Source: a virus. Taken from it: 20,850 nucleotides of DNA. Positions 4,527-17,427 of this stretch are shown piece after piece. The stretch covers positions 1 through 20,850 of the IMG/VR virus record IMGVR_UViG_3300019999_000023; one strand, written 5' to 3'. Both the position numbers and the translations under genes were made by a program. The notes below the pieces were generated by a model that saw only the letters and a list, made by a program, of their open reading frames with translations, was not told the DNA's origin and did no database searches. The number at the start of each line of letters is the position of its first letter. Position 1 is the first letter of the stretch.

Positions 4527-4859
4527 ATGCGGAAACTCATAGCTATCACCATCCTGATTGCGTGGCCTACCTGCGTTGTCTGGGCTAGCGTCAATGCGTC
4601 CGGGACAATCACGGTAACGGATACATTTCAGTCTGTATTTGCAGCCAATCCGACTCGTACAGGATGTAAGGTTCAGAATAATGGCGCAGCTGCAATGTAT
4701 GTATATTCTGGCCCCATAGCGAGCGCTACGAAGGATAGTAGCTATCAGATTGTGGCGGCTCAATCATCATTCGATTGTGCAATAGGCTTTGGGGTGCAGA
4801 CCGATCAGATTTCGATCACCGGAACTTCGACCCAGAAATTCTACGCGAACCAGTGGTGA
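4527..4859 (+). CDS. Small exported beta-rich protein with Sec signal peptide
   Basis: 110 residues starting at ATG 4527, two bases after the upstream TGA. Residues 1-20 form a clear Sec signal peptide: MRK, a hydrophobic core (LIAITILIAW) and a likely cleavage after VVWA. The mature part is about 90 residues of short strands (SGTITVTDTFQSVF, CKVQNNGAAAMYVYSG, DQISITGTSTQKFYANQW) with two cysteines. An exported protein between neck genes is odd. It could be a periplasmic factor made during infection, for example for exclusion or envelope change, or a virion protein that acquired an export signal. It shares 17 identical bases (the NNGAAA segment) with the gene at 3503, suggesting a common module. 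No named family is recognised. Confidence 0.75.
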   Translation: MRKLIAITILIAWPTCVVWASVNASGTITVTDTFQSVFAANPTRTGCKVQNNGAAAMYVYSGPIASATKDSSYQIVAAQSSFDCAIGFGVQTDQISITGTSTQKFYANQW

Positions 4860-5577: not shown

Positions 5578-7530
5578 ATGGCCACGATTCCGGCATCAGC
5601 CGTTGTTAATGTCCTTCCGAGCGTTCTAAACGCAGGCGGTAATTCGTTATTCCTAAATGGCCTCGTCCTTACGTCGAGCACGCGAGTCCCAATGGGAACT
5701 GTGCAATCGTTCCCAGCTGCCTCGAATGTCTCGTCATATTTCGGGGCGCAGGCAACCGAAACCCTTGGCGCGACCGTCTATTTCAACGGCTACAGCAACT
5801 CGACGCAAAAGCCAGGCGCACTCCTATTCGCCCAATACAATTCGACAGCTGTTGCCGCTTATCTTCGGAGCGGCAACATCACCGCCGTTGGAGTGGCTGG
5901 TCTACAAGCCATGAGTGGCTCGCTTACGGTTGTCGTGGACGGCTATGCGCGCACGGCGGGCTCTCTGAGCTTAGCGGCGGCGAATAGCTTCTCTGCTGCG
6001 GCCGCGCTTATCCAGACCGGGTTGAATGCTACCCCAGTTGTTGGGGCGACCTCGACTGGCTCGATTGCCATCTCGACGGCGACTATAACCGGTTCGCTGA
6101 ATGACTTCATCTTGATAGTCACAGCCGCCAGCGGTGCCCCGATTGTCCCTGGCACTATCTTGGCGGGCACGGGTATCGTGGCCGGCACTAGAGTTACGAG
6201 CCAGCTAACTGGGCCAGCTGGAGGCGTCGGCACCTACGCATTCACCGCGTCTGCTCCGCAGGTCGTTGCCAGCGAGGCCATTACCGGCACCTACGGAACA
6301 ATGACCACCACGGCCGTGGCATCCGGAACACTTGCGGTTGGTCAGACGCTATCCGGCGGCACAACCACCGCAGGAACGCTGATCACTGGCCTTGGGACAG
6401 GCACGGGGCTAACCGGGACCTATTACGTCACGCCGTCCCAGACGGTCGTTAGCACGGCGATCACAGCATCTTCTACGCCTCTTACCGTGACATTCGATTC
6501 AGTGTCAGGTGCTTTTATCGTCCAATCTGCAGTGTTGGGGGCGGCCTCGACCGTCGCTTTTGCAACCGGCACCTTATCGGCTTCATTATTGATGACGTCT
6601 GTTACCGGCGCGGCATTATCGCAGGGGGCCGAGGCGGCAACCCCGTCCGCATTCATGACAAGCATATCCGGCCTCACCCAGAATTGGGCAACGTTCCTGT
6701 TTGCGTTCGATCCGGATTTTGGAACCGGAAACACGCAAAAGCTTGCATTCGCGGCATGGGCGAGTGGCCAGAATAGCCGTTATGCATTCCTTTGCTCTGA
6801 TACAGATATCTCTCCAACGCAAAGCACTTCGGCCACCAATAGCCTTGGCTATCTCATTGGCCCGAACGGCAACAATTATGCTGGCACGTGTCTTATCTAT
6901 GATCCTAACAACAGCTATTTAGCTTGGCTAGCGGCAGGATACGCGGCATCGCTTGATTTTGGCGCCACGAACGGGCGAACCACAGCAGCGTTCCGCAGCC
7001 AACCAGGCATTCAGGCGTCTGTCACGAACCAGACGGCTGAGGCCAATCTCGTGGCCAATGGGTACAACCTCTATGGCGCCTTCGCGACGGCCAACCAATC
7101 GTTCCTGTGGTTCTATCCAGGCTCGGTCTCCGGGCCATTCCAATGGCTGGACAGCTACGTCAATCAGATTTGGCTGAATTCTCAGTTGCAGCTGGCCCTT
7201 ATGGAGTTGCTGCAGAACATTCCATCGATCCCGTACAATGCGGCGGGCTACGCCATGATCGAGGCCGCGTGTTTGGATCCCATCAACGCGGGCCTTAATT
7301 TTGGTGCGTTCCGAACTGGTGTGCCATTATCGGATGCGCAGATCATAGAAGTGAATAACGCAGCTGGTGCCAACGTCGCGCCGATCCTAACGGTGCAGGG
7401 ATGGTATTTCCAGGTGCAGCCTGCGACACCGCAAGTACGTGAGGCTAGACAAACCCCGCCGATTTTCTTCTTCTACGTCGATGGGCAAAGCGTTCAGCAG
7501 ATCACAATCAACAGCATTGATGTTCAGTAA
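5578..7530 (+). CDS. Tail sheath protein (DUF3383 family) with tandem module insertion
   Basis: 650 residues, ATG 5578 one base after the upstream stop. The N-terminal 150 residues (SAVVNVLPSVLNAGGNSLFLNGLVL, MGTVQSFPAASNVSSYFG, GYSNSTQKPGALLFAQYN) and C-terminal ~290 residues (SISGLTQNWATFLFAFDPDFG ... WYFQVQPATPQVREAR, PPIFFFYVDGQSVQQITINSI) are DUF3383, the contractile sheath of these phages. The sheath polymer surrounds the tube and contracts on infection. Residues 168-298 are two tandem copies of the Gly/Thr-rich module (LAGTGIVAGTRVTSQLTG ..., then LGTGTGLTGTYYVTPSQTV). They sit in the outer-domain region where sheath proteins vary, so the module probably decorates the tail surface. The protein is longer than the ~450-500 residues I expect for the family; the insertion accounts for most of the excess. 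Confidence 0.88.
   Translation: MATIPASAVVNVLPSVLNAGGNSLFLNGLVLTSSTRVPMGTVQSFPAASNVSSYFGAQATETLGATVYFNGYSNSTQKPGALLFAQYNSTAVAAYLRSGNITAVGVAGLQAMSGSLTVVVDGYARTAGSLSLAAANSFSAAAALIQTGLNATPVVGATSTGSIAISTATITGSLNDFILIVTAASGAPIVPGTILAGTGIVAGTRVTSQLTGPAGGVGTYAFTASAPQVVASEAITGTYGTMTTTAVASGTLAVGQTLSGGTTTAGTLITGLGTGTGLTGTYYVTPSQTVVSTAITASSTPLTVTFDSVSGAFIVQSAVLGAASTVAFATGTLSASLLMTSVTGAALSQGAEAATPSAFMTSISGLTQNWATFLFAFDPDFGTGNTQKLAFAAWASGQNSRYAFLCSDTDISPTQSTSATNSLGYLIGPNGNNYAGTCLIYDPNNSYLAWLAAGYAASLDFGATNGRTTAAFRSQPGIQASVTNQTAEANLVANGYNLYGAFATANQSFLWFYPGSVSGPFQWLDSYVNQIWLNSQLQLALMELLQNIPSIPYNAAGYAMIEAACLDPINAGLNFGAFRTGVPLSDAQIIEVNNAAGANVAPILTVQGWYFQVQPATPQVREARQTPPIFFFYVDGQSVQQITINSIDVQ
6079..6471 (+). 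repeat. Two tandem Gly/Thr-rich modules, copies C1 and C2 (sheath gene)
   Basis: C1 spans about 6079-6285 (ATITGSLNDFILIVTAASG ... GTGIVAGTRVTSQLTGPAGG, GTYAFTASAPQVVASEAIT). C2 spans about 6286-6471 (TTTAVASGTLAVGQTLSGG ... GLGTGTGLTGTYYVTPSQTV, VSTAITA). They share the order strand, 'GTG/GGT..AGT', 'LTG/GTG', 'GTY', 'SQ.V.S' with each other and with copies A and B. Confidence 0.65.
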
Positions 7531-8611: not shown

Positions 8612-10552
8612 ATGGCCACCATCATCGACTCTCTCTTTCTCGAACTAGGATTCGATACCACCAAAATTACCAAAGGCCAGAAGGAAGCTAATGCGGCTGT
8701 TAAGAAAACCGCCGAAGAATTTGATAAGCAAGGCAAGCTTATCGAGAAGCAAGCCGCCAAGTTTGGCGAAGCGGTTGGTAACTCGACGGTTAAGCTTTTA
8801 GGACTTTTCGCCACAATGCTCATGGGCGGAAAGGCAGCAAGAGAATTTGTCCAATACATTACGGACGCTGATGCCGCGCTTGGTAGATCAGCGCGGAACT
8901 TACAGGTATCGACAGACACCCTTTCCGAGTGGCAGAACGTCGTAAGGGAATCTGGCGGTAAGGCCGAGGACGCAACGTCATCGATTCAGGCTCTTTCGGC
9001 CAGCATTGCAAACGTTAAACTTGGGCATATTTCTGAGCAGTTTGCAGAGGGATGGTTCAAGATTGCTGCGCTAGGTGGCAAGGCGATGGATTGGAGCAAG
9101 CCGCTTGATCAGTCGATGTTCGATCTTTCGGACAATCTGAAGAGGATTTCCGATAAAGAAGGCCCGGCTGTTGCCCTCCAACTTGCCAAGATGATTGGCA
9201 TCAATGAAGCGCTGTTTAACGTTTTGGTGAGGGGGCGGGAGGTTAATAAGCAGCTGCTTGAACAGCAGAAACAGAGGGGCATCGCCGAGGCTGGGAATAT
9301 AGCTAATGCGCAAAAGTTGCAGAAATCTTACGCCGATACGGCGCAGTCTGGCAGCTATCTTGGGCGAGTGATAGGATCAATCCTAACTCCGGCCATATTG
9401 AGTGTTAATGAGTGGTTGCAACGATCAGCAACGAACTGGGGAAACTGGCTCGTTATAGGGTATGTTAAGTTCGATGCGTTCTTACACCAGGTAACGGCTG
9501 GCTGGCATAAACTGGTAGATATATTCGAGCCTGACTTTGCCTATGTCGATAATCATTGGCGTGAAATGCTTGATCAGATGGAGCACGCCTTCGGCGAGTT
9601 CGGCAATAAGATCGGGCAGTCTGGTTCCTTCTTGCTAGGCATGTTTCAGCAAGCATTCTCCAGTGTGTTCCTGTGGCTTAAGAAAAGCTTCAATGAGATA
9701 TGGGGAGCCGTTTTCGGCCATCCTCCTTTCGGCGATGCGGGCACAACTGGTGGCGCTATCGTTGAAGGTCTTGGCTATGGGTCGACGCCGAAGTCTACGG
9801 GCGGCGGCGAGTCTGGACGATATGGCAGTAATCGTAGCACGTCTTCAGGGAGAGATCGTGGTGGGTCATCGCCAGGAACGAGAGGATGGTGGACTGCTGA
9901 TAGGGTTTCACATGCAATTGAGAAATTACAGGCGGGAGGGGTGTCTGAGCTAGGTGCTAAGGCGCTCGTATCTAGGTGGATGAATGTTGAGGCTACAGGG
10001 GGGCCAACCGCTCAGAATGCAATAGGCGGCGGGCACTATGGGATTGGTCAATGGAGCCGCGCTAGAGCCGGAGCGCTATGGGGGAACCCAGACTTTGATG
10101 CTCAGCTTGATCATGCGGTCAAGGAACTGCACGGCCCAGAGGGTGCAGCGTTAAGCAAATTAAATGCTGCCAAAACAGCTGACGAGGCCGCAACCGGGGC
10201 CAGCATGTTCGAAAGGGCCGAAGGATACAATAGTGGAACTGGGCGAGATAACTTCACGGACAAAACGGCAAGAGGCATTGGTAGCATAGGCAAGGGCGGC
10301 GGCTCAGCGACAACGTCAGGCCAGACCGATCCACACAAGCCGGGCTTTGATCCGAACGCTGTTAAGTTCCATGACTATTTCCCAAAATCTGGCGGGTCTC
10401 CAAGCTCTAGCAATGCGACGACGAACAACTCGCATCAAGCGCATATAACTATTAACTCAAGCTCGGGTAATCCGCACGAAATCGCGAAAGCGGTCAAAGA
10501 TGCGATCGATCGGACAAGTTATGCTATGCATGGGAATTATAGCTTAGCTTAG
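8612..10552 (+). CDS. Tape measure protein with C-terminal tail lysozyme domain
   Basis: 646 residues. ATG 8612 follows the frameshifted chaperone stop directly. Residues 1-60 are charged and helical (coiled-coil-like), residues 60-370 are helix-rich with hydrophobic stretches (KLLGLFATMLMGG; LVIGYVKFDAF), and a Gly/Ser linker follows (390-425). Residues ~427-545 resemble the phage tail lysozyme family: WWTADRVSHAIEKLQAGG, LVSRWMNVEATGGP with the likely catalytic Glu460, HYGIGQW, LWGNPDFDAQLDHAVKEL and FERAEGYNSGTGRDNF. The tape part sets tail length; the lysozyme part would open peptidoglycan during DNA entry. The tape section is short, so the tail should be rather short. The last four bases overlap the stop of a - strand gene. 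Confidence 0.88.
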   Translation: MATIIDSLFLELGFDTTKITKGQKEANAAVKKTAEEFDKQGKLIEKQAAKFGEAVGNSTVKLLGLFATMLMGGKAAREFVQYITDADAALGRSARNLQVSTDTLSEWQNVVRESGGKAEDATSSIQALSASIANVKLGHISEQFAEGWFKIAALGGKAMDWSKPLDQSMFDLSDNLKRISDKEGPAVALQLAKMIGINEALFNVLVRGREVNKQLLEQQKQRGIAEAGNIANAQKLQKSYADTAQSGSYLGRVIGSILTPAILSVNEWLQRSATNWGNWLVIGYVKFDAFLHQVTAGWHKLVDIFEPDFAYVDNHWREMLDQMEHAFGEFGNKIGQSGSFLLGMFQQAFSSVFLWLKKSFNEIWGAVFGHPPFGDAGTTGGAIVEGLGYGSTPKSTGGGESGRYGSNRSTSSGRDRGGSSPGTRGWWTADRVSHAIEKLQAGGVSELGAKALVSRWMNVEATGGPTAQNAIGGGHYGIGQWSRARAGALWGNPDFDAQLDHAVKELHGPEGAALSKLNAAKTADEAATGASMFERAEGYNSGTGRDNFTDKTARGIGSIGKGGGSATTSGQTDPHKPGFDPNAVKFHDYFPKSGGSPSSSNATTNNSHQAHITINSSSGNPHEIAKAVKDAIDRTSYAMHGNYSLA

Positions 10553-10794
10553 CGACACTTATTCCAGCCGGTTTCTAGTTGGTAACAATACCCGTCTTTA
10601 CGCAGCGATTTAGAAATTATATTGCGTGCGTCGCAAGCGCGGTCTGTTGCCGGATCATCGCCATGGCCACCACGGCACCCTTCATCAAGTGAGTTATATA
10701 CGGCTATCATATCTTTTGACTTCTGTGACGAAGCGGCCAGAGCCGGGGCGGTTGTCAGGATCGTTGCGACGGCAAATAGAATTATCTTCCTCAT
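10549..10794 (-). CDS. Small secreted cysteine-containing protein (moron 2)
   Basis: 81 residues, read on the - strand from ATG at 10794; the frame extends further upstream to 10941, but the start at 10794 gives a perfect signal peptide (MRKIILFAVATILTTAPALA, cleavage after ALA) and has a purine-rich AGAGAGATAG before it. The mature ~61 residues carry four cysteines in the order EGCRGG, ACDAR, GYCYQ and WNKCR, which could form two disulfides in the periplasm. No named family is recognised; a remote link to small envelope proteins such as lysozyme-inhibitor types is only a thought. It is the second gene of a two-gene - strand cassette, 19 bases after its partner. Its stop overlaps the tape measure stop by four bases. 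Likely expressed independently of the virion operon. Confidence 0.78.
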   Translation of the reverse strand: MRKIILFAVATILTTAPALAASSQKSKDMIAVYNSLDEGCRGGHGDDPATDRACDARNIISKSLRKDGYCYQLETGWNKCR

Positions 10795-10813
10795 TTTATC
10801 TATCTCTCTACTT

Positions 10814-11041
10814 TTATGGGCATATCCATACACCATTAGCCCAGCAGTATACCGTGCCGCGCATGTTCGGATTTTCGGAATTTCCGTGCAGGAAGCCGTT
10901 CTGGTCCCGCCAGCCACGGAAGCCATCGTCACGGCCAACATTGTCGTCGTGGCGGTGATCGCGATTGCCGTGGAGCAGAGTGCCGTCTGCCATTGCTGGA
11001 AGGGCCATGACCACCGCGATTATAATGATTATCTTCCTCAT
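10814..11041 (-). CDS. Small secreted His/Asp-rich protein (moron 1)
   Basis: 75 residues on the - strand from ATG at 11041. The N-terminus is a signal peptide (MRKIIIIIAVVMALPAMADG, cleavage after AMA). The mature part is rich in His, Asp, Arg and Gly (LLHGNRDHRHDDNVGRDDGF, RGWRDQNGFLHGNSENPNMR) and ends with GTVYCWANGVWICP, a possible disulfide hairpin. The His/Asp content could bind metal, but this is speculation. The first 14 bases of the gene are identical to the first 14 of its neighbour at 10794. It has its own likely promoter upstream (11069-11097). Small exported proteins in this setting are often superinfection-exclusion or host-fitness genes, but no family is recognised. Confidence 0.75.
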   Translation of the reverse strand: MRKIIIIIAVVMALPAMADGTLLHGNRDHRHDDNVGRDDGFRGWRDQNGFLHGNSENPNMRGTVYCWANGVWICP

Positions 11042-11068
11042 GTTTATCGTTCTCTTTCTTCTAATCTA

Positions 11069-11097
11069 GATATGGGGCATTTGCCCCGCGCTGTCAA
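11069..11097 (-). promoter_or_regulatory. Likely promoter of the - strand secreted-protein cassette
   Basis: On the - strand a perfect -35 box TTGACA (plus coordinates 11092-11097) is followed 17 bases later by CATATC (11069-11074), a weak -10. It lies 28 bases upstream of the ATG at 11041. The -35 box overlaps the AAGGA Shine-Dalgarno (11096-11100) of the + strand gene at 11109. The weak -10 suggests dependence on an activator or control at the palindrome inside the spacer. Confidence 0.5.
11074..11087. repeat. Perfect 14-bp palindrome in the promoter spacer (possible operator)
   Basis: GGGGCATTTGCCCC is a self-complementary 14-mer (two 6-bp arms, 2-base centre). It occupies most of the -35/-10 spacer of the - strand promoter. 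There is no following T run on either strand, so it does not look like an intrinsic terminator. A repressor or activator site is the simplest idea. Confidence 0.45.
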
Positions 11098-11108
11098 GGA
11101 CAAATGTC

Positions 11109-11726
11109 ATGGCAACACTTCAGCTCATGACGGCTGACACGTTCACGTATTTCAGCAACGTCTTCCAAGAGCAATGGGGAATCTTCCAGAACGGCATCCC
11201 AGTTGTCACTGCGGACACTGTAGCCGCGTTCGAATATCGGCAGGAATGGGTACTCAGTGACTTCCCGGTCGAGGGCGGCGCGTTTCGGAGCTACGACAAA
11301 GTCTTTACGCCGTTTGATGCGAGATTCAGGTTTGTTGCCGGAGGTTCAGAAGCAAATAGGGCGGCGCTATTGGCGTCGGTGCAGGCGATAGCCGGTAACC
11401 TGACGTTGTATGACGCGGCCTCGCCAGAGGCTATTTATATCGGCTGCAACATCAAGCACTTTGATTATCGAAGGACCTCAACCAGAGGCGTTGGCTTGAT
11501 CGAAATCGATGTATGGCTTGAGCAGGTCATGGTGACCAGTTCATCTCAGAACAATACCGCACAGCCAAGCGGCGCTTCGCCGACGAATGACGGATCGATC
11601 CAGCCGATTGATTTGGGCACGGTGCCAGGAGTTACCGCAACTAACTCTATCGGGACTCTTGGTGGAGGCGCCGGACTACCGGGCGGTAACGCTGGCAATC
11701 TAGGTACATTTCCGGCGTTCACATAA
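11109..11726 (+). CDS. Distal-tail (Dit-like) baseplate protein
   Basis: 205 residues, ATG 11109 preceded by AAGGA (11096-11100). The N-terminal ~145 residues are beta-rich (FQNGIPVVTADTVAAFEYRQEWVL, FPVEGGAFRSYDKVFTPFDARF, RFVAGGSEANRAALLASVQAIA, IDVWLEQVMVT), with a 'defined strands then helix' order I associate with ring-forming baseplate or Dit-like proteins. The C-terminal 50 residues are low-complexity Gly/Pro/Thr (LGGGAGLPGGNAGNLGTFP), probably flexible. It is the first baseplate gene after the tape measure gene and the antisense insert. The product name is by position and fold impression only. Confidence 0.65.
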   Translation: MATLQLMTADTFTYFSNVFQEQWGIFQNGIPVVTADTVAAFEYRQEWVLSDFPVEGGAFRSYDKVFTPFDARFRFVAGGSEANRAALLASVQAIAGNLTLYDAASPEAIYIGCNIKHFDYRRTSTRGVGLIEIDVWLEQVMVTSSSQNNTAQPSGASPTNDGSIQPIDLGTVPGVTATNSIGTLGGGAGLPGGNAGNLGTFPAFT

Positions 11727-14122: not shown

Positions 14123-14129
14123 GGATGTA

Positions 14130-16844
14130 ATGAAATATTTTCTTGTAGCTCTTTTCCTTGCTCTTGCTTCGCCAGTTCGCGCGGCGTGTTCTGCTGGTAC
14201 CGCTCTTGCGATTATACCGATTTGCGTGCTTGGCGGCCCAGCATCTGCGGAATGTGCGTCCGGATATACGCCGGTCTCTGCGGTCTCGATTTGCGTGCCA
14301 AACGGCAGCGGCGTGACGGCTATCCCGGCGAACACTTTCCTCGGCTCTCTTGGGATGAACATTCACATCAGCCAGGGCTTCTCCGAGGCAGCTTATGAGC
14401 CAGAGTTCACCTTCACCGGCGTCCGCAACGCGCGCGACTACTACACTTCCACGAGCCTTGTAAATCTGCACAACAATACCGCATCTAGCACCTATCCGGG
14501 CGTCAAGATGGACATCCTCGCAGATGCTCCTTCGACGATCGTGTCTGAGGGAACCACGCTTAACACCGCCGGGGCGTTCATGGGCGCCGAAGGCCCGAAC
14601 GAGCCCAACAATTTCTCTATCACCTATGGCGGAAACGCCGGCGGTGACAGAATCACATGGGTTCCTGTCGCTCAATTCCAAAGGGATCTAGATACGGCCA
14701 TGAAGGGATCGTCGCTTAGCGCGTTCCCGGTCTTCAATGTGTCCGAAACTGGCGGCGAATTCAATAACGTTGGCCTTCAGTGCCTAGTCCTGAACAGCTC
14801 ATGCGCGGGTGCCTCGGCTGTGACGCTGATGGCGGCGAACACCGCTTATGCGGATTATGCGAACGTTCACAATTATGTGCAGGGCAACGGCTCGTGCGGC
14901 GTGTTCAGCTCCCGCGTAGCGAACCAGGCATGGCAGGCGATGGACCAGCTGCTCAACAGCTGCTGGGATGGGTTCTACGGCGATCAGATCGTCACCTGGA
15001 GCGGCCACTTCAACGGCTACTCGACCGGTCAGGCGCCGGGAGTGCCGCGCATTTCGTCGGAGACTGGCTGGGATAGTTCAACTACCGGCTCGACCGTCGA
15101 CTACCAAGGCAAGATCATCGAACTGACATACCTTGACGGATACAAGCGAGGCAACGCGTGGACGTTCATCTACGAGATGGTTGACGCGCAGGGATCGACC
15201 GGCAATCAGGGACTCTACGATTCCAATAATGTTGCGAAGCTCGGAGCAACCTACCTCCACAACCTCACCACTATTTTGCAAGACACGGGGAATTTTACGC
15301 CTGGATCGCTTGTCTACTCTATTGCAAGCGAACCATCGACCGTCCACGACATGCTCCTTCAAAAGGTCAATGGTGACTTCTATCTAGTCATCTGGGATGA
15401 ACAGACAACGTCGGGGACAACCGATAGCATCACCGTAACTCTCGGCAGCGCGGCGAACGTGGCGATGTTCGATACCACGCTTGGAACATCACCAGTATCG
15501 TTCACCGCTGGAACCTCTTCCATCCCACTGACACTGAGCGACCACGCCGTAATTCTTCAGATTTCGGCCGCACCGCTGGCTCCCGCCTTTTATGTCTCGA
15601 CGACCGGCAACGATTCCAACGCTGGCACGCTGGCCTCACCATTCCTGACGCTTCATCAATGCAAGGTGTCTATGGAGGCGAGTGGGACCAAAAAGACTTG
15701 CTATGTCCGGGGCGGCAGTTATGCGCCCGCTGCCGCCGACGCCTCTATCTGCAACGGGACGACCACTTGCGCGGTTGGCATGTCCTCAGCGGCCGGCGAC
15801 AATAACCTGACCTTTTCATACTACCCGCCGGATGGCTACGACAGTGCTGACATCACCGGCGGCGCGACCTCCGACTCGACCGGGCTATATGACATCTTCT
15901 TCGTCGGCAACACGACCGGTGTCACGATCAATGGCCTGAACCTTCATCATTTCCGCTATGCCGGGATATCGAGCGGCGGCGGCAACCACACACTGACGGT
16001 GACCAATAATATTGTCTCGAACGGGTTCTGCGTAGTGAACTCCGGCAATTGCACGAGTACGCAGAACGAGGCGGCCATTCAATGTTATGGATGCACCGGT
16101 GCGACGATCACGAACAATGTCGTTCATGACATGGCATCATTCGGCATCGCATTCACCAATGCGAACGGTGACCTGAACAATCTCGACATAGAGAACAATG
16201 TCGTCTACCAGACATGCGTCTCGCTACAGGATTGCGGCGCGATATATGTCGATGACTTGGCGCAGACATCGACGAACAAGCGGATCAAGAACAACTACGT
16301 TCACGACGGCGCCGTGTTCGATGCGGCGATATCCGGCTGGGGCGCGGCCATCTATATGGATGACTGCGACTCAAACAATACCGTCACGGGAAACGTCCTA
16401 ACCGGGAAGAATGGTGGCAATAACATCATGATCCACGGGGGCAGCCATAATGTCGTCTCTGGGAACTTGATTGATCTTGCCACGCTCGGAATGCCGATCC
16501 TGCGGGAGCAATCGTCAAGCTGCTCGACGGTGACCGGCAATTCATTCAAAAACAACATCGTCATCAGCAACGGAGCCGCCGGCGGCTACACCGGGACGAG
16601 CGGGACGGTGACCGTAGCGAACAATGCATATCACAATTACGGCTCCGGGACGCTCAGCACTTCCGGAGACAGCAGCCCAGTTTCAGAAGACCCATCACTT
16701 ACATGCTGGGCATACACGCTCGGGGCCGGGAGCCTGGCCGCGACTCCGCCGGTGACGTTTTCGGGCATCCCAGGCGTATGGGGCTATCCCGGCTTCACTC
16801 TTCCGCATACCGGCACCGTGCCGTCTAGTCCGCATACCTGCTAA
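14130..16844 (+). CDS. Exported two-enzyme spike: TIM-barrel glycoside hydrolase plus beta-helix
   Basis: 904 residues from ATG 14130 (GAGG at 14121-14124). An in-frame upstream start at 14079 lies inside the previous gene and would hide the signal peptide, so I reject it. Residues 1-18 are a Sec signal peptide (MKYFLVALFLALASPVRA). A Cys-pair module follows (ECASGYTPVSAVSICV, residues 41-56). Residues ~65-390 look like a clan GH-A TIM barrel: GPNEPN (155-160) with candidate acid/base Glu158 and RISSETGW with candidate nucleophile Glu311. A beta-sandwich follows (395-480), then a right-handed beta-helix (485-840) beginning FYVSTTGNDSNAGTLASPF, with repeated N-N-x-V/I turns (TNNVVHDM, ENNVVYQT, KNNYVHDG). 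It likely degrades a surface polysaccharide. The exact glycan is unknown. A signal peptide on a tail spike is odd. Confidence 0.78.
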   Translation: MKYFLVALFLALASPVRAACSAGTALAIIPICVLGGPASAECASGYTPVSAVSICVPNGSGVTAIPANTFLGSLGMNIHISQGFSEAAYEPEFTFTGVRNARDYYTSTSLVNLHNNTASSTYPGVKMDILADAPSTIVSEGTTLNTAGAFMGAEGPNEPNNFSITYGGNAGGDRITWVPVAQFQRDLDTAMKGSSLSAFPVFNVSETGGEFNNVGLQCLVLNSSCAGASAVTLMAANTAYADYANVHNYVQGNGSCGVFSSRVANQAWQAMDQLLNSCWDGFYGDQIVTWSGHFNGYSTGQAPGVPRISSETGWDSSTTGSTVDYQGKIIELTYLDGYKRGNAWTFIYEMVDAQGSTGNQGLYDSNNVAKLGATYLHNLTTILQDTGNFTPGSLVYSIASEPSTVHDMLLQKVNGDFYLVIWDEQTTSGTTDSITVTLGSAANVAMFDTTLGTSPVSFTAGTSSIPLTLSDHAVILQISAAPLAPAFYVSTTGNDSNAGTLASPFLTLHQCKVSMEASGTKKTCYVRGGSYAPAAADASICNGTTTCAVGMSSAAGDNNLTFSYYPPDGYDSADITGGATSDSTGLYDIFFVGNTTGVTINGLNLHHFRYAGISSGGGNHTLTVTNNIVSNGFCVVNSGNCTSTQNEAAIQCYGCTGATITNNVVHDMASFGIAFTNANGDLNNLDIENNVVYQTCVSLQDCGAIYVDDLAQTSTNKRIKNNYVHDGAVFDAAISGWGAAIYMDDCDSNNTVTGNVLTGKNGGNNIMIHGGSHNVVSGNLIDLATLGMPILREQSSSCSTVTGNSFKNNIVISNGAAGGYTGTSGTVTVANNAYHNYGSGTLSTSGDSSPVSEDPSLTCWAYTLGAGSLAATPPVTFSGIPGVWGYPGFTLPHTGTVPSSPHTC

Positions 16845-16854
16845 GAGGAACACA

Positions 16855-17427
16855 ATGAACAGACTTCTTATTTCTTTCATCGCATTTTTGGGGCTTACCA
16901 TCGCGGCAAATGCCCAATGCGCGACCGGCTACACGCAGCTCAGTAATGTCTTTGCGTGCCAATTAGTTGGGTTCAACGTCGGCTACACAACCACGCCAAC
17001 AGCAAGCGCAGAGACTCCGGCCCTCACCTATGTGCTTGCGAATGGCCCTTATACGATGCCGCAAGCGGGGGCTATTCAATCGGTATCTGTCTATCTAACT
17101 GGGGCTGTGACCGGAATCCTTGGTGTCTACGACGCCACCGGGAGCGGCGGTAAACCTGGTGCGCTAATTGCGACCACGGCTTCAACGTCACTTGTTGCCG
17201 GATGGAACACAGTTGCTACTACCACCCATCCGTCACTCACGAGTGGGGAGGTTTTCTGGCCTGTTGTGTTGGGTACGGCTGGAACTTCGGTGCCATTAGA
17301 AAGAGACTACGTCAGCGGAACTTACTACTACGATACATCAGGCAATTCAGTTCTGCCGTCTTCATATGGCACCGCAACTGTAGGAAATACTGGGGAGGCC
17401 TGGGGGCTGTACGCCACGTTCCAGTAA
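16855..17427 (+). CDS. Small exported beta-sandwich protein of the spike cassette
   Basis: 190 residues from ATG 16855 with AGAGGAA just upstream (16844-16850). Residues 1-20 form a signal peptide (MNRLLISFIAFLGLTIAANA), followed by the Cys-pair module CATGYTQLSNVFAC that also occurs in the spike upstream. The rest is beta-rich: VYLTGAVTGILGVYDATGSG, GKPGALIATTASTSLVAGWN, HPSLTSGEVFWPVVLG, TYYYDTSGNSVLPSSY. This resembles carbohydrate-binding or 'choice-of-anchor' beta-sandwich proteins. It may bind the glycan or attach the spike. No enzyme motif is seen and the family is not certain. Confidence 0.72.
   Translation: MNRLLISFIAFLGLTIAANAQCATGYTQLSNVFACQLVGFNVGYTTTPTASAETPALTYVLANGPYTMPQAGAIQSVSVYLTGAVTGILGVYDATGSGGKPGALIATTASTSLVAGWNTVATTTHPSLTSGEVFWPVVLGTAGTSVPLERDYVSGTYYYDTSGNSVLPSSYGTATVGNTGEAWGLYATFQ

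What the first reader, a model, noticed from the sequence alone, without database searches (positions are those of the whole stretch)
10549..11097. Antisense two-gene secreted-protein cassette between tape measure and baseplate genes
Two small genes with signal peptides sit on the - strand in an otherwise one-strand operon. They share an identical 14-base start (ATGAGGAAGATAAT) and similar upstream bases, suggesting duplication of an expression leader with different mature parts (one four-Cys, one His/Asp-rich). Independent promoter and unrelated content fit a moron, possibly superinfection exclusion or envelope defence. I recognise no family.
Basis: partly seen in the sequence, partly recalled or inferred. 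Interest (0 to 1): 0.68.

Follow-up and report, generated by a model that had tools for sequence, protein, structure and literature searches.

The report
Phage tail-lysozyme-linked secreted protein cassette
Tucked backwards into a phage's tail genes is a two-gene cassette for exported small proteins, one of which belongs to an unnamed family that different phages have repeatedly placed beside the tail enzyme used to drill through the bacterial cell wall, so it is probably an inhibitor that keeps rival phages out of the cell.

Summary
Two small - strand genes with signal peptides (B 10814-11041, then A 10549-10794) sit between the tape measure gene (TMP) and a baseplate gene. They have a near-consensus alphaproteobacterial promoter of their own and a duplicated leader.

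B is an orphan. A (four Cys) is not: it is the minimal form of a secreted domain (CRGG-x-GDDP-x-T-x(3)-C...R...GWCYG...W-x(2)-C), represented only by phrog_25984 (unknown function). That domain lies in or beside the tail module of at least eight other phage types, in five of them antisense as here. Of 50 IMG/VR records with the motif, 40 carry the tail lysozyme PF18013 (9 of 14 independent groups of 20 kb or more), against 1 of 68 control records. The window's TMP has that lysozyme too. The domain also sits next to, and in one protein is fused to, the lysozyme-inhibitor domain LprI.

Best reading: a moron encoding a periplasmic inhibitor of incoming tail lysozymes, working like T4 Spackle but without detectable homology to it. 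Biochemistry is untested. A direct tape-measure (DNA-injection) block and a general envelope or peptidoglycan function remain rivals, and most chromosomal copies show no link to tail lysozymes.

The parts
11070..11098 (-). promoter-like site of the cassette: CTTGAC-N17-CCATAT, one mismatch from the S. meliloti sigma-70 consensus
   Evidence: sequence only, no transcript data
11074..11087 (.). perfect 14-bp dyad GGGGCAAATGCCCC in the promoter spacer, possible operator (inference)
   Evidence: no second perfect copy in the window
10814..11041 (-). gene B, 75-aa exported protein, two Cys, His/Asp-rich, first gene of the cassette, no known relatives
10549..10794 (-). gene A, 81-aa exported four-Cys protein, minimal member of the CRGG-GDDP (phrog_25984 C-terminal) domain family; proposed tail-lysozyme inhibitor
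11028..11044 (-). leader repeat copy 1 (start of gene B)
10781..10797 (-). leader repeat copy 2 (start of gene A)
8612..10552 (+). tape measure protein gene (646 aa), convergent with the cassette, stop codons overlap by 4 nt
   Evidence: phrog_9570, E 2e-26
9977..10237 (+). Phage_lysozyme2 (PF18013) domain inside the TMP, proposed type of target when carried by an incoming phage
   Evidence: E 3.2e-7, over the curated cut-off; alignment keeps the Glu column in all four TMPs
11109..11726 (+). phrog_1830 gene of the baseplate region, right-hand flank; abuts the TMP gene in the relative L008

Best explanation
The cassette is a moron: a separately promoted, antisense two-gene insert in the tail operon of a contractile-tailed phage. 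Shown here: its place and strand, signal peptides by sequence, a near-consensus promoter, the family of gene A, and that family's repeated placement beside lysozyme-bearing tape measures and LprI genes. Inferred: both proteins are exported to the periplasm independently of late tail transcription; there the four-Cys protein A binds and inhibits the cell-wall lysozyme (PF18013 type) on the tail of incoming related phages, so that their tails cannot penetrate (superinfection exclusion), working like T4 Spackle. B would be a second envelope protein of a kind that is swapped between phages, with no assigned target.
For: Gene A matches phrog_25984 (E 9.2e-8), and its domain is found in 51 viral and 45 genomic loci, nearly always in exported proteins. 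PF18013 occurs in 40 of 50 motif-bearing viral records, against 1 of 33 random and 0 of 35 integrase-motif records; by independent group of at least 20 kb, 9 of 14 against 1 of 68, Fisher p about 6e-8. The domain lies within 4 kb of the lysozyme in 6 of 9 groups, P about 0.002. Window TMP has PF18013. The L038 TMP has another lysozyme (PF00959) followed by LprI and the A domain; L006 has lysozyme TMP, A domain, LprI; L093 fuses LprI to the A domain. Tail-adjacent copies are not one clade (AU p 0.016), so the position arose more than once. The precedent Spackle is a small helical periplasmic inhibitor of the T4 tail lysozyme (PMC7677548).
Against: No binding or activity data. No fold or sequence match to Spackle or LprI for gene A. 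In Rhizobiaceae genomes the domain and PF18013 co-occur no more than chance (4 seen, 2.8 expected), and most chromosomal copies have no tail gene nearby. Some phage copies lie outside the tail module (L011, L015, L025, L031, L047, L053). Viral controls are not matched by host genus. The window is a fragment and a temperate lifestyle is not shown.
Confidence: 0.42

Rival explanations
1. Superinfection exclusion by a different step: the secreted proteins bind the tape measure itself, or a host periplasmic or inner-membrane partner, and block DNA injection, like HK97 gp15 or TP-J34 Ltp. The lysozyme association would then only reflect that these TMPs carry lysozyme domains.
For: Position next to the TMP; HK97 gp15 and Ltp act at injection and their escape maps to tail tube/TMP genes (PMC10883804; PMC3952083). 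The L032 TMP beside an A-domain gene has no recognised lysozyme.
Against: Gene A has no predicted membrane or lipid anchor (by eye). The association follows the lysozyme, even when the gene is far from the TMP in the same genome (L015, L047, L058), and LprI co-occurrence points to lysozyme.
Confidence: 0.2
2. General lysogenic-conversion factor of the envelope: A protects the host against foreign lysozymes (predator, eukaryotic or T6SS) or tunes peptidoglycan turnover, and phages carry it to benefit the host rather than to exclude phages.
For: Chromosomal copies in many Alphaproteobacteria lie away from prophage genes; no genome-level link with PF18013 in Rhizobiaceae. LprI was first described as a lysozyme inhibitor and is proposed as T6SS immunity (PMC8867033).
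Against: Among phages the link to tail lysozyme is strong and placement beside the TMP or baseplate recurs in several lineages.
Confidence: 0.2
3. A and B are minor virion or assembly proteins (for example exported tail accessory proteins) and not morons.
For: They sit inside the tail operon; the same phage has other tail-region proteins with signal peptides (4527-4859, 14127-16844, 16855-17427).
Against: Antisense to the operon with its own promoter; absent from the same place in L008; relatives occur outside tail modules and in chromosomes.
Confidence: 0.07
4. Chance ORFs or decaying remnants without function.
For: Gene B has no relatives; the only IMG/VR hit for it (L003) lies in an ORF read antisense to a csrA-like gene.
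Against: Gene A is a conserved family member with an intact signal peptide and all four Cys; promoter and duplicated leader.
Confidence: 0.03

Closest known systems
T4 Spackle (Sp)
   Same: Small exported periplasmic protein of a phage, mainly helical with disulfide(s); the proposed target is the tail lysozyme of an incoming phage (PMC7677548)
   Different: No detectable sequence or fold match; Spackle is an early T4 gene product, whereas here the gene is an antisense insert beside the TMP; the target here would be a PF18013 lysozyme on a tape measure rather than gp5
LprI (PF07007) lysozyme inhibitors
   Same: Exported Cys-containing proteins; LprI genes are direct neighbours of the A domain beside TMPs (L006, L038) and one protein fuses both domains (L093)
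   Different: Gene A does not match PF07007; it is a different and shorter domain
phrog_25984
   Same: Gene A matches its C-terminal 48 positions (206-253 of 273); same tape-measure neighbourhood in Acinetobacter prophages
   Different: phrog_25984 proteins have an extra N-terminal region of about 200 aa; function unknown
HK97 gp15 and TP-J34 Ltp superinfection-exclusion proteins
   Same: Moron-type genes whose products act at the envelope and whose target maps to the TMP or tail tube (PMC10883804, PMC3952083)
   Different: gp15 is a predicted inner-membrane protein and Ltp a lipoprotein; sequences unrelated; Ltp lies in the lysogeny module

Membership tests
CRGG-GDDP domain family (phrog_25984 C-terminal domain) | CRGG-x-GDDP-x-T-x(3)-C motif, following Arg, two further Cys | tested here: met
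CRGG-GDDP domain family (phrog_25984 C-terminal domain) | Sec signal peptide or lipobox in front of the domain | tested here: met
   Gene A has a classical signal peptide by sequence (judged by eye; no predictor available)
CRGG-GDDP domain family (phrog_25984 C-terminal domain) | in phages: lysozyme-bearing tape measure in the same genome | tested here: met
T4 Spackle | sequence or fold relationship to Spackle | tested here: inconclusive
   No Spackle among profile or fold matches; absence from a fold list does not exclude it
T4 Spackle | small exported periplasmic protein | tested here: met
   81-aa precursor with signal peptide; export itself not shown
T4 Spackle | binds and inhibits a phage tail lysozyme | not testable with these tools
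   Only genomic association available
LprI (PF07007) | match to PF07007 | tested here: not met
   no PF07007 match for gene A at E<=1
LprI (PF07007) | lysozyme inhibition | not testable with these tools
   needs purified protein
HK97 gp15 / Ltp type injection blockers | membrane or lipid anchor | tested here: not met
   Gene A has a plain signal peptide, no lipobox Cys and no second hydrophobic stretch (by eye); some relatives are lipoproteins
HK97 gp15 / Ltp type injection blockers | escape mutations in the TMP or tail tube of the excluded phage | not testable with these tools
   needs phage genetics

The most novel reading that the evidence does not exclude
The CRGG-GDDP domain is a new, widespread family of periplasmic inhibitors specific for phage tail lysozymes (PF18013 and others), captured repeatedly from host chromosomes and placed, often antisense, next to the phage's own tail lysozyme gene as an immunity partner against kin phages.
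Probability: 0.4. Interest if true: 0.8.

Novelty: new variant of a known kind. Interest (0 to 1): 0.6.

Why it matters
Tail-lysozyme inhibition as superinfection exclusion is worked out for T4 Spackle. A second, apparently unrelated and widely spread family with the same logic would make cell-wall penetration a common battleground between prophages and incoming phages in Alphaproteobacteria and Acinetobacter. It would also give a function to phrog_25984 and to an unnamed chromosomal domain family. The claim is directly testable with small soluble proteins and isolated TMP lysozyme domains.

Tried and rejected
P0002 (gene B) relatives: none in INPHARED (weak Mycobacterium hits at E 0.5), PLSDB or 240 alphaproteobacterial genomes; the IMG/VR hit L003 lies in an ORF read antisense to a csrA-like gene and is taken as spurious. 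The single-sequence model of P0002 has pLDDT 53 and is uninformative.

Fold search for gene A: only generic helical hairpins, no E<=0.001, best VIA Z 6.8, within the background for helical models; no Spackle or LprI row seen, which excludes nothing.

Whole-genome association of the A domain with PF18013 in Rhizobiaceae: tested and absent. PF18013 in 19 of 44 A-domain genomes at E<=1e-5 looked striking but is confounded by prophage content and genome size, since 14% of Rhizobiaceae genomes have it.

A shared alphaproteobacterial promoter upstream of the A genes of other phages was looked for; only the window's stands out.

PADLOC: no match for gene A and only a chance-level one (E 0.085) for B. 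A Pfam lipoprotein signature for A (LPAM_1, E 0.13) was rejected: below cut-off and no lipobox Cys.

Selection bias: motif residues are conserved partly by construction of the DNA pattern; the later Arg, the GWCYG segment and the last two Cys are not. A combined distance test with every group counted gives only p 0.018, because three groups have the gene far from the lysozyme; the co-occurrence test is the stronger evidence. The group definitions were made by eye from sequence similarity.

Full report
WHAT IS THERE. The window is a 20,850-base IMG/VR virus record holding the head-tail operon of a contractile-tailed phage: major capsid protein, DUF3383 sheath, tape measure protein (TMP), a phrog_1830 protein, a Pam3_gp18-like plug and an E217 gp41-like hub, all on the + strand. 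Between the TMP (8612-10552) and the phrog_1830 gene (11109-11726) lie two - strand genes. Gene B (10814-11041, 75 aa) comes first, gene A (10549-10794, 81 aa) second, with 19 nt between them; A's stop codon overlaps the TMP stop by 4 nt. Both begin with a signal peptide (judged by eye).

Upstream of B is CTTGAC-N17-CCATAT, one base off the Sinorhizobium meliloti sigma-70 consensus (consensus from PMC2573895). It is the only match with up to two mismatches in the window, and its spacer contains a perfect 14-bp dyad. In the nearest relative found (L008, 47% identity in the phrog_1830 gene) the TMP and phrog_1830 genes abut with no insert. So the cassette behaves as a moron.

GENE A BELONGS TO A FAMILY. 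It hits the C-terminal part of phrog_25984 (273 aa, unknown function; E 9.2e-8) but no Pfam or NCBIfam model. Relatives beside tape measures in an unrelated phage (L002) and an Acinetobacter prophage (L006) led to a DNA pattern for C-R-G-x-x-G-D-D-P-x-T-x(3)-C. It found 51 viral and 45 genomic loci, nearly all in-frame in exported proteins or lipoproteins. The alignment shows four Cys, the GDDP motif, a following Arg and a GWCYG...W-x(2)-C end. AlphaFold with 46 relatives gives a helical hairpin followed by a beta hairpin (block pLDDT 83-96 from residue 21 on), without a convincing structural match. Gene A is the domain alone.

NEIGHBOURHOOD. Tail-adjacent settings: the window; Mesorhizobium phages (antisense between the plug and hub genes, in L010 with a second antisense exported gene); L013/L023 (antisense, next to the lysozyme TMP); L021 (antisense, overlapping the TMP stop by 4 nt exactly as here); the L039/L048/L049/L057/L059 group (antisense behind the hub); a Methylobacterium prophage, L163 (antisense behind the hub, with an antisense membrane-protein gene); two Acinetobacter types (sense, right behind the TMP or one gene on); and L002 (sense, right before the TMP). 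That makes eight types besides the window, five of them antisense. The copies in these settings are not one clade (AU p 0.016), so the position was gained more than once. Where there is a second gene of the pair, it differs each time.

LYSOZYME LINK. The window TMP carries Phage_lysozyme2 (PF18013, E 3.2e-7). So do the TMPs of L002, L006, L013 and L021. Over whole records, 40 of 50 motif-bearing viral records carry PF18013, against 1 of 33 random records and 0 of 35 records picked by a GC-rich integrase motif. Collapsed to independent groups of at least 20 kb, 9 of 14 against 1 of 68 (Fisher p about 6e-8). In 6 of 9 groups the two genes are within 4 kb (P about 0.002 for uniform placement). 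The L038 TMP has a different lysozyme (PF00959), and next to it lie an LprI lysozyme-inhibitor gene and the A domain. In L006-type prophages the A-domain gene is followed by LprI. In a Magnetococcales genome an LprI domain is fused to the A domain, with another LprI gene next door (L093).

LIMITS. In 297 Rhizobiaceae genomes the A domain (20) and PF18013 (42) co-occur only 4 times, 2.8 expected, and most chromosomal copies sit among ordinary genes. The association is therefore a property of phage copies, and the domain probably has a wider role, perhaps against other lysozymes. The viral controls are not matched for host genus. A stricter distance test over all groups gives only p 0.018. Nothing here shows that the window's phage is temperate.

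MECHANISM. The best-supported reading is a periplasmic inhibitor of incoming tail lysozymes. T4 Spackle is the worked example: 75 residues after signal cleavage, helical, periplasmic, inhibits gp5 lysozyme but not the endolysin (PMC7677548). LprI beside a predicted peptidoglycan-hydrolase T6SS effector is a proposed immunity pair with the same layout (PMC8867033). Shown: family, position, co-occurrence, promoter sequence. Inferred: export, lysozyme binding, exclusion. The main rival is a direct block of DNA injection through the TMP, as for HK97 gp15 and Ltp (PMC10883804, PMC3952083). Gene B is an orphan and its role is open.

VERDICT. Gene A is a new member of an unnamed but widespread family whose placement points to tail-lysozyme inhibition. 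As a Spackle-like activity in an apparently unrelated family it would be a new variant of a known kind. Literature searches for an inhibitor of this sort beside tape measures found only Spackle (open-licence PMC papers only).

Noticed in passing
window 14127-16844 (+): A protein of about 905 aa with a signal peptide and a right-handed beta-helix (PF13229, E 1e-8) downstream of the baseplate genes: a Sec signal on a likely tail-region protein is unusual.
   Followed up: partly
window 16855-17427 and 4527-4859 (+): Two more proteins encoded in the structural operon that begin with signal peptides (MNRLLISFIAFLGLTIAANAQ..., MRKLIAITILIAWPTCVVWA...); the second matches phrog_22789 weakly.
   Followed up: no
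window 5578-7530 (+): Sheath protein (DUF3383) whose N-terminal half carries a long glycine/threonine-rich repeat-like stretch; the best Pfam stretch starts only at residue 289.
   Followed up: no
L093 2546-4092: Magnetococcales chromosome: an LprI domain fused to the CRGG-GDDP domain, next to a second LprI gene.
   Followed up: yes
L038 5358-8152: Acinetobacter phage TMP with a PF00959-type lysozyme, followed by LprI and the A-domain gene.
   Followed up: yes
L031 9022-9551 and L054 1176-1705: The closest phage relative of gene A (49% identity) is also an antisense pair with a second exported protein, but next to a large gene that looks like a primase/helicase rather than the tail module.
   Followed up: partly
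L004 3944-4219 (Agrobacterium phage Atu_ph07 gp615): A jumbo phage also carries the domain (33% identity, E 2e-5) in a region of small hypothetical genes with no annotated tail gene nearby.
   Followed up: no
window 11074-11087: Perfect 14-bp dyad between the -35 and -10 elements of the cassette promoter, a possible repressor operator.
   Followed up: partly
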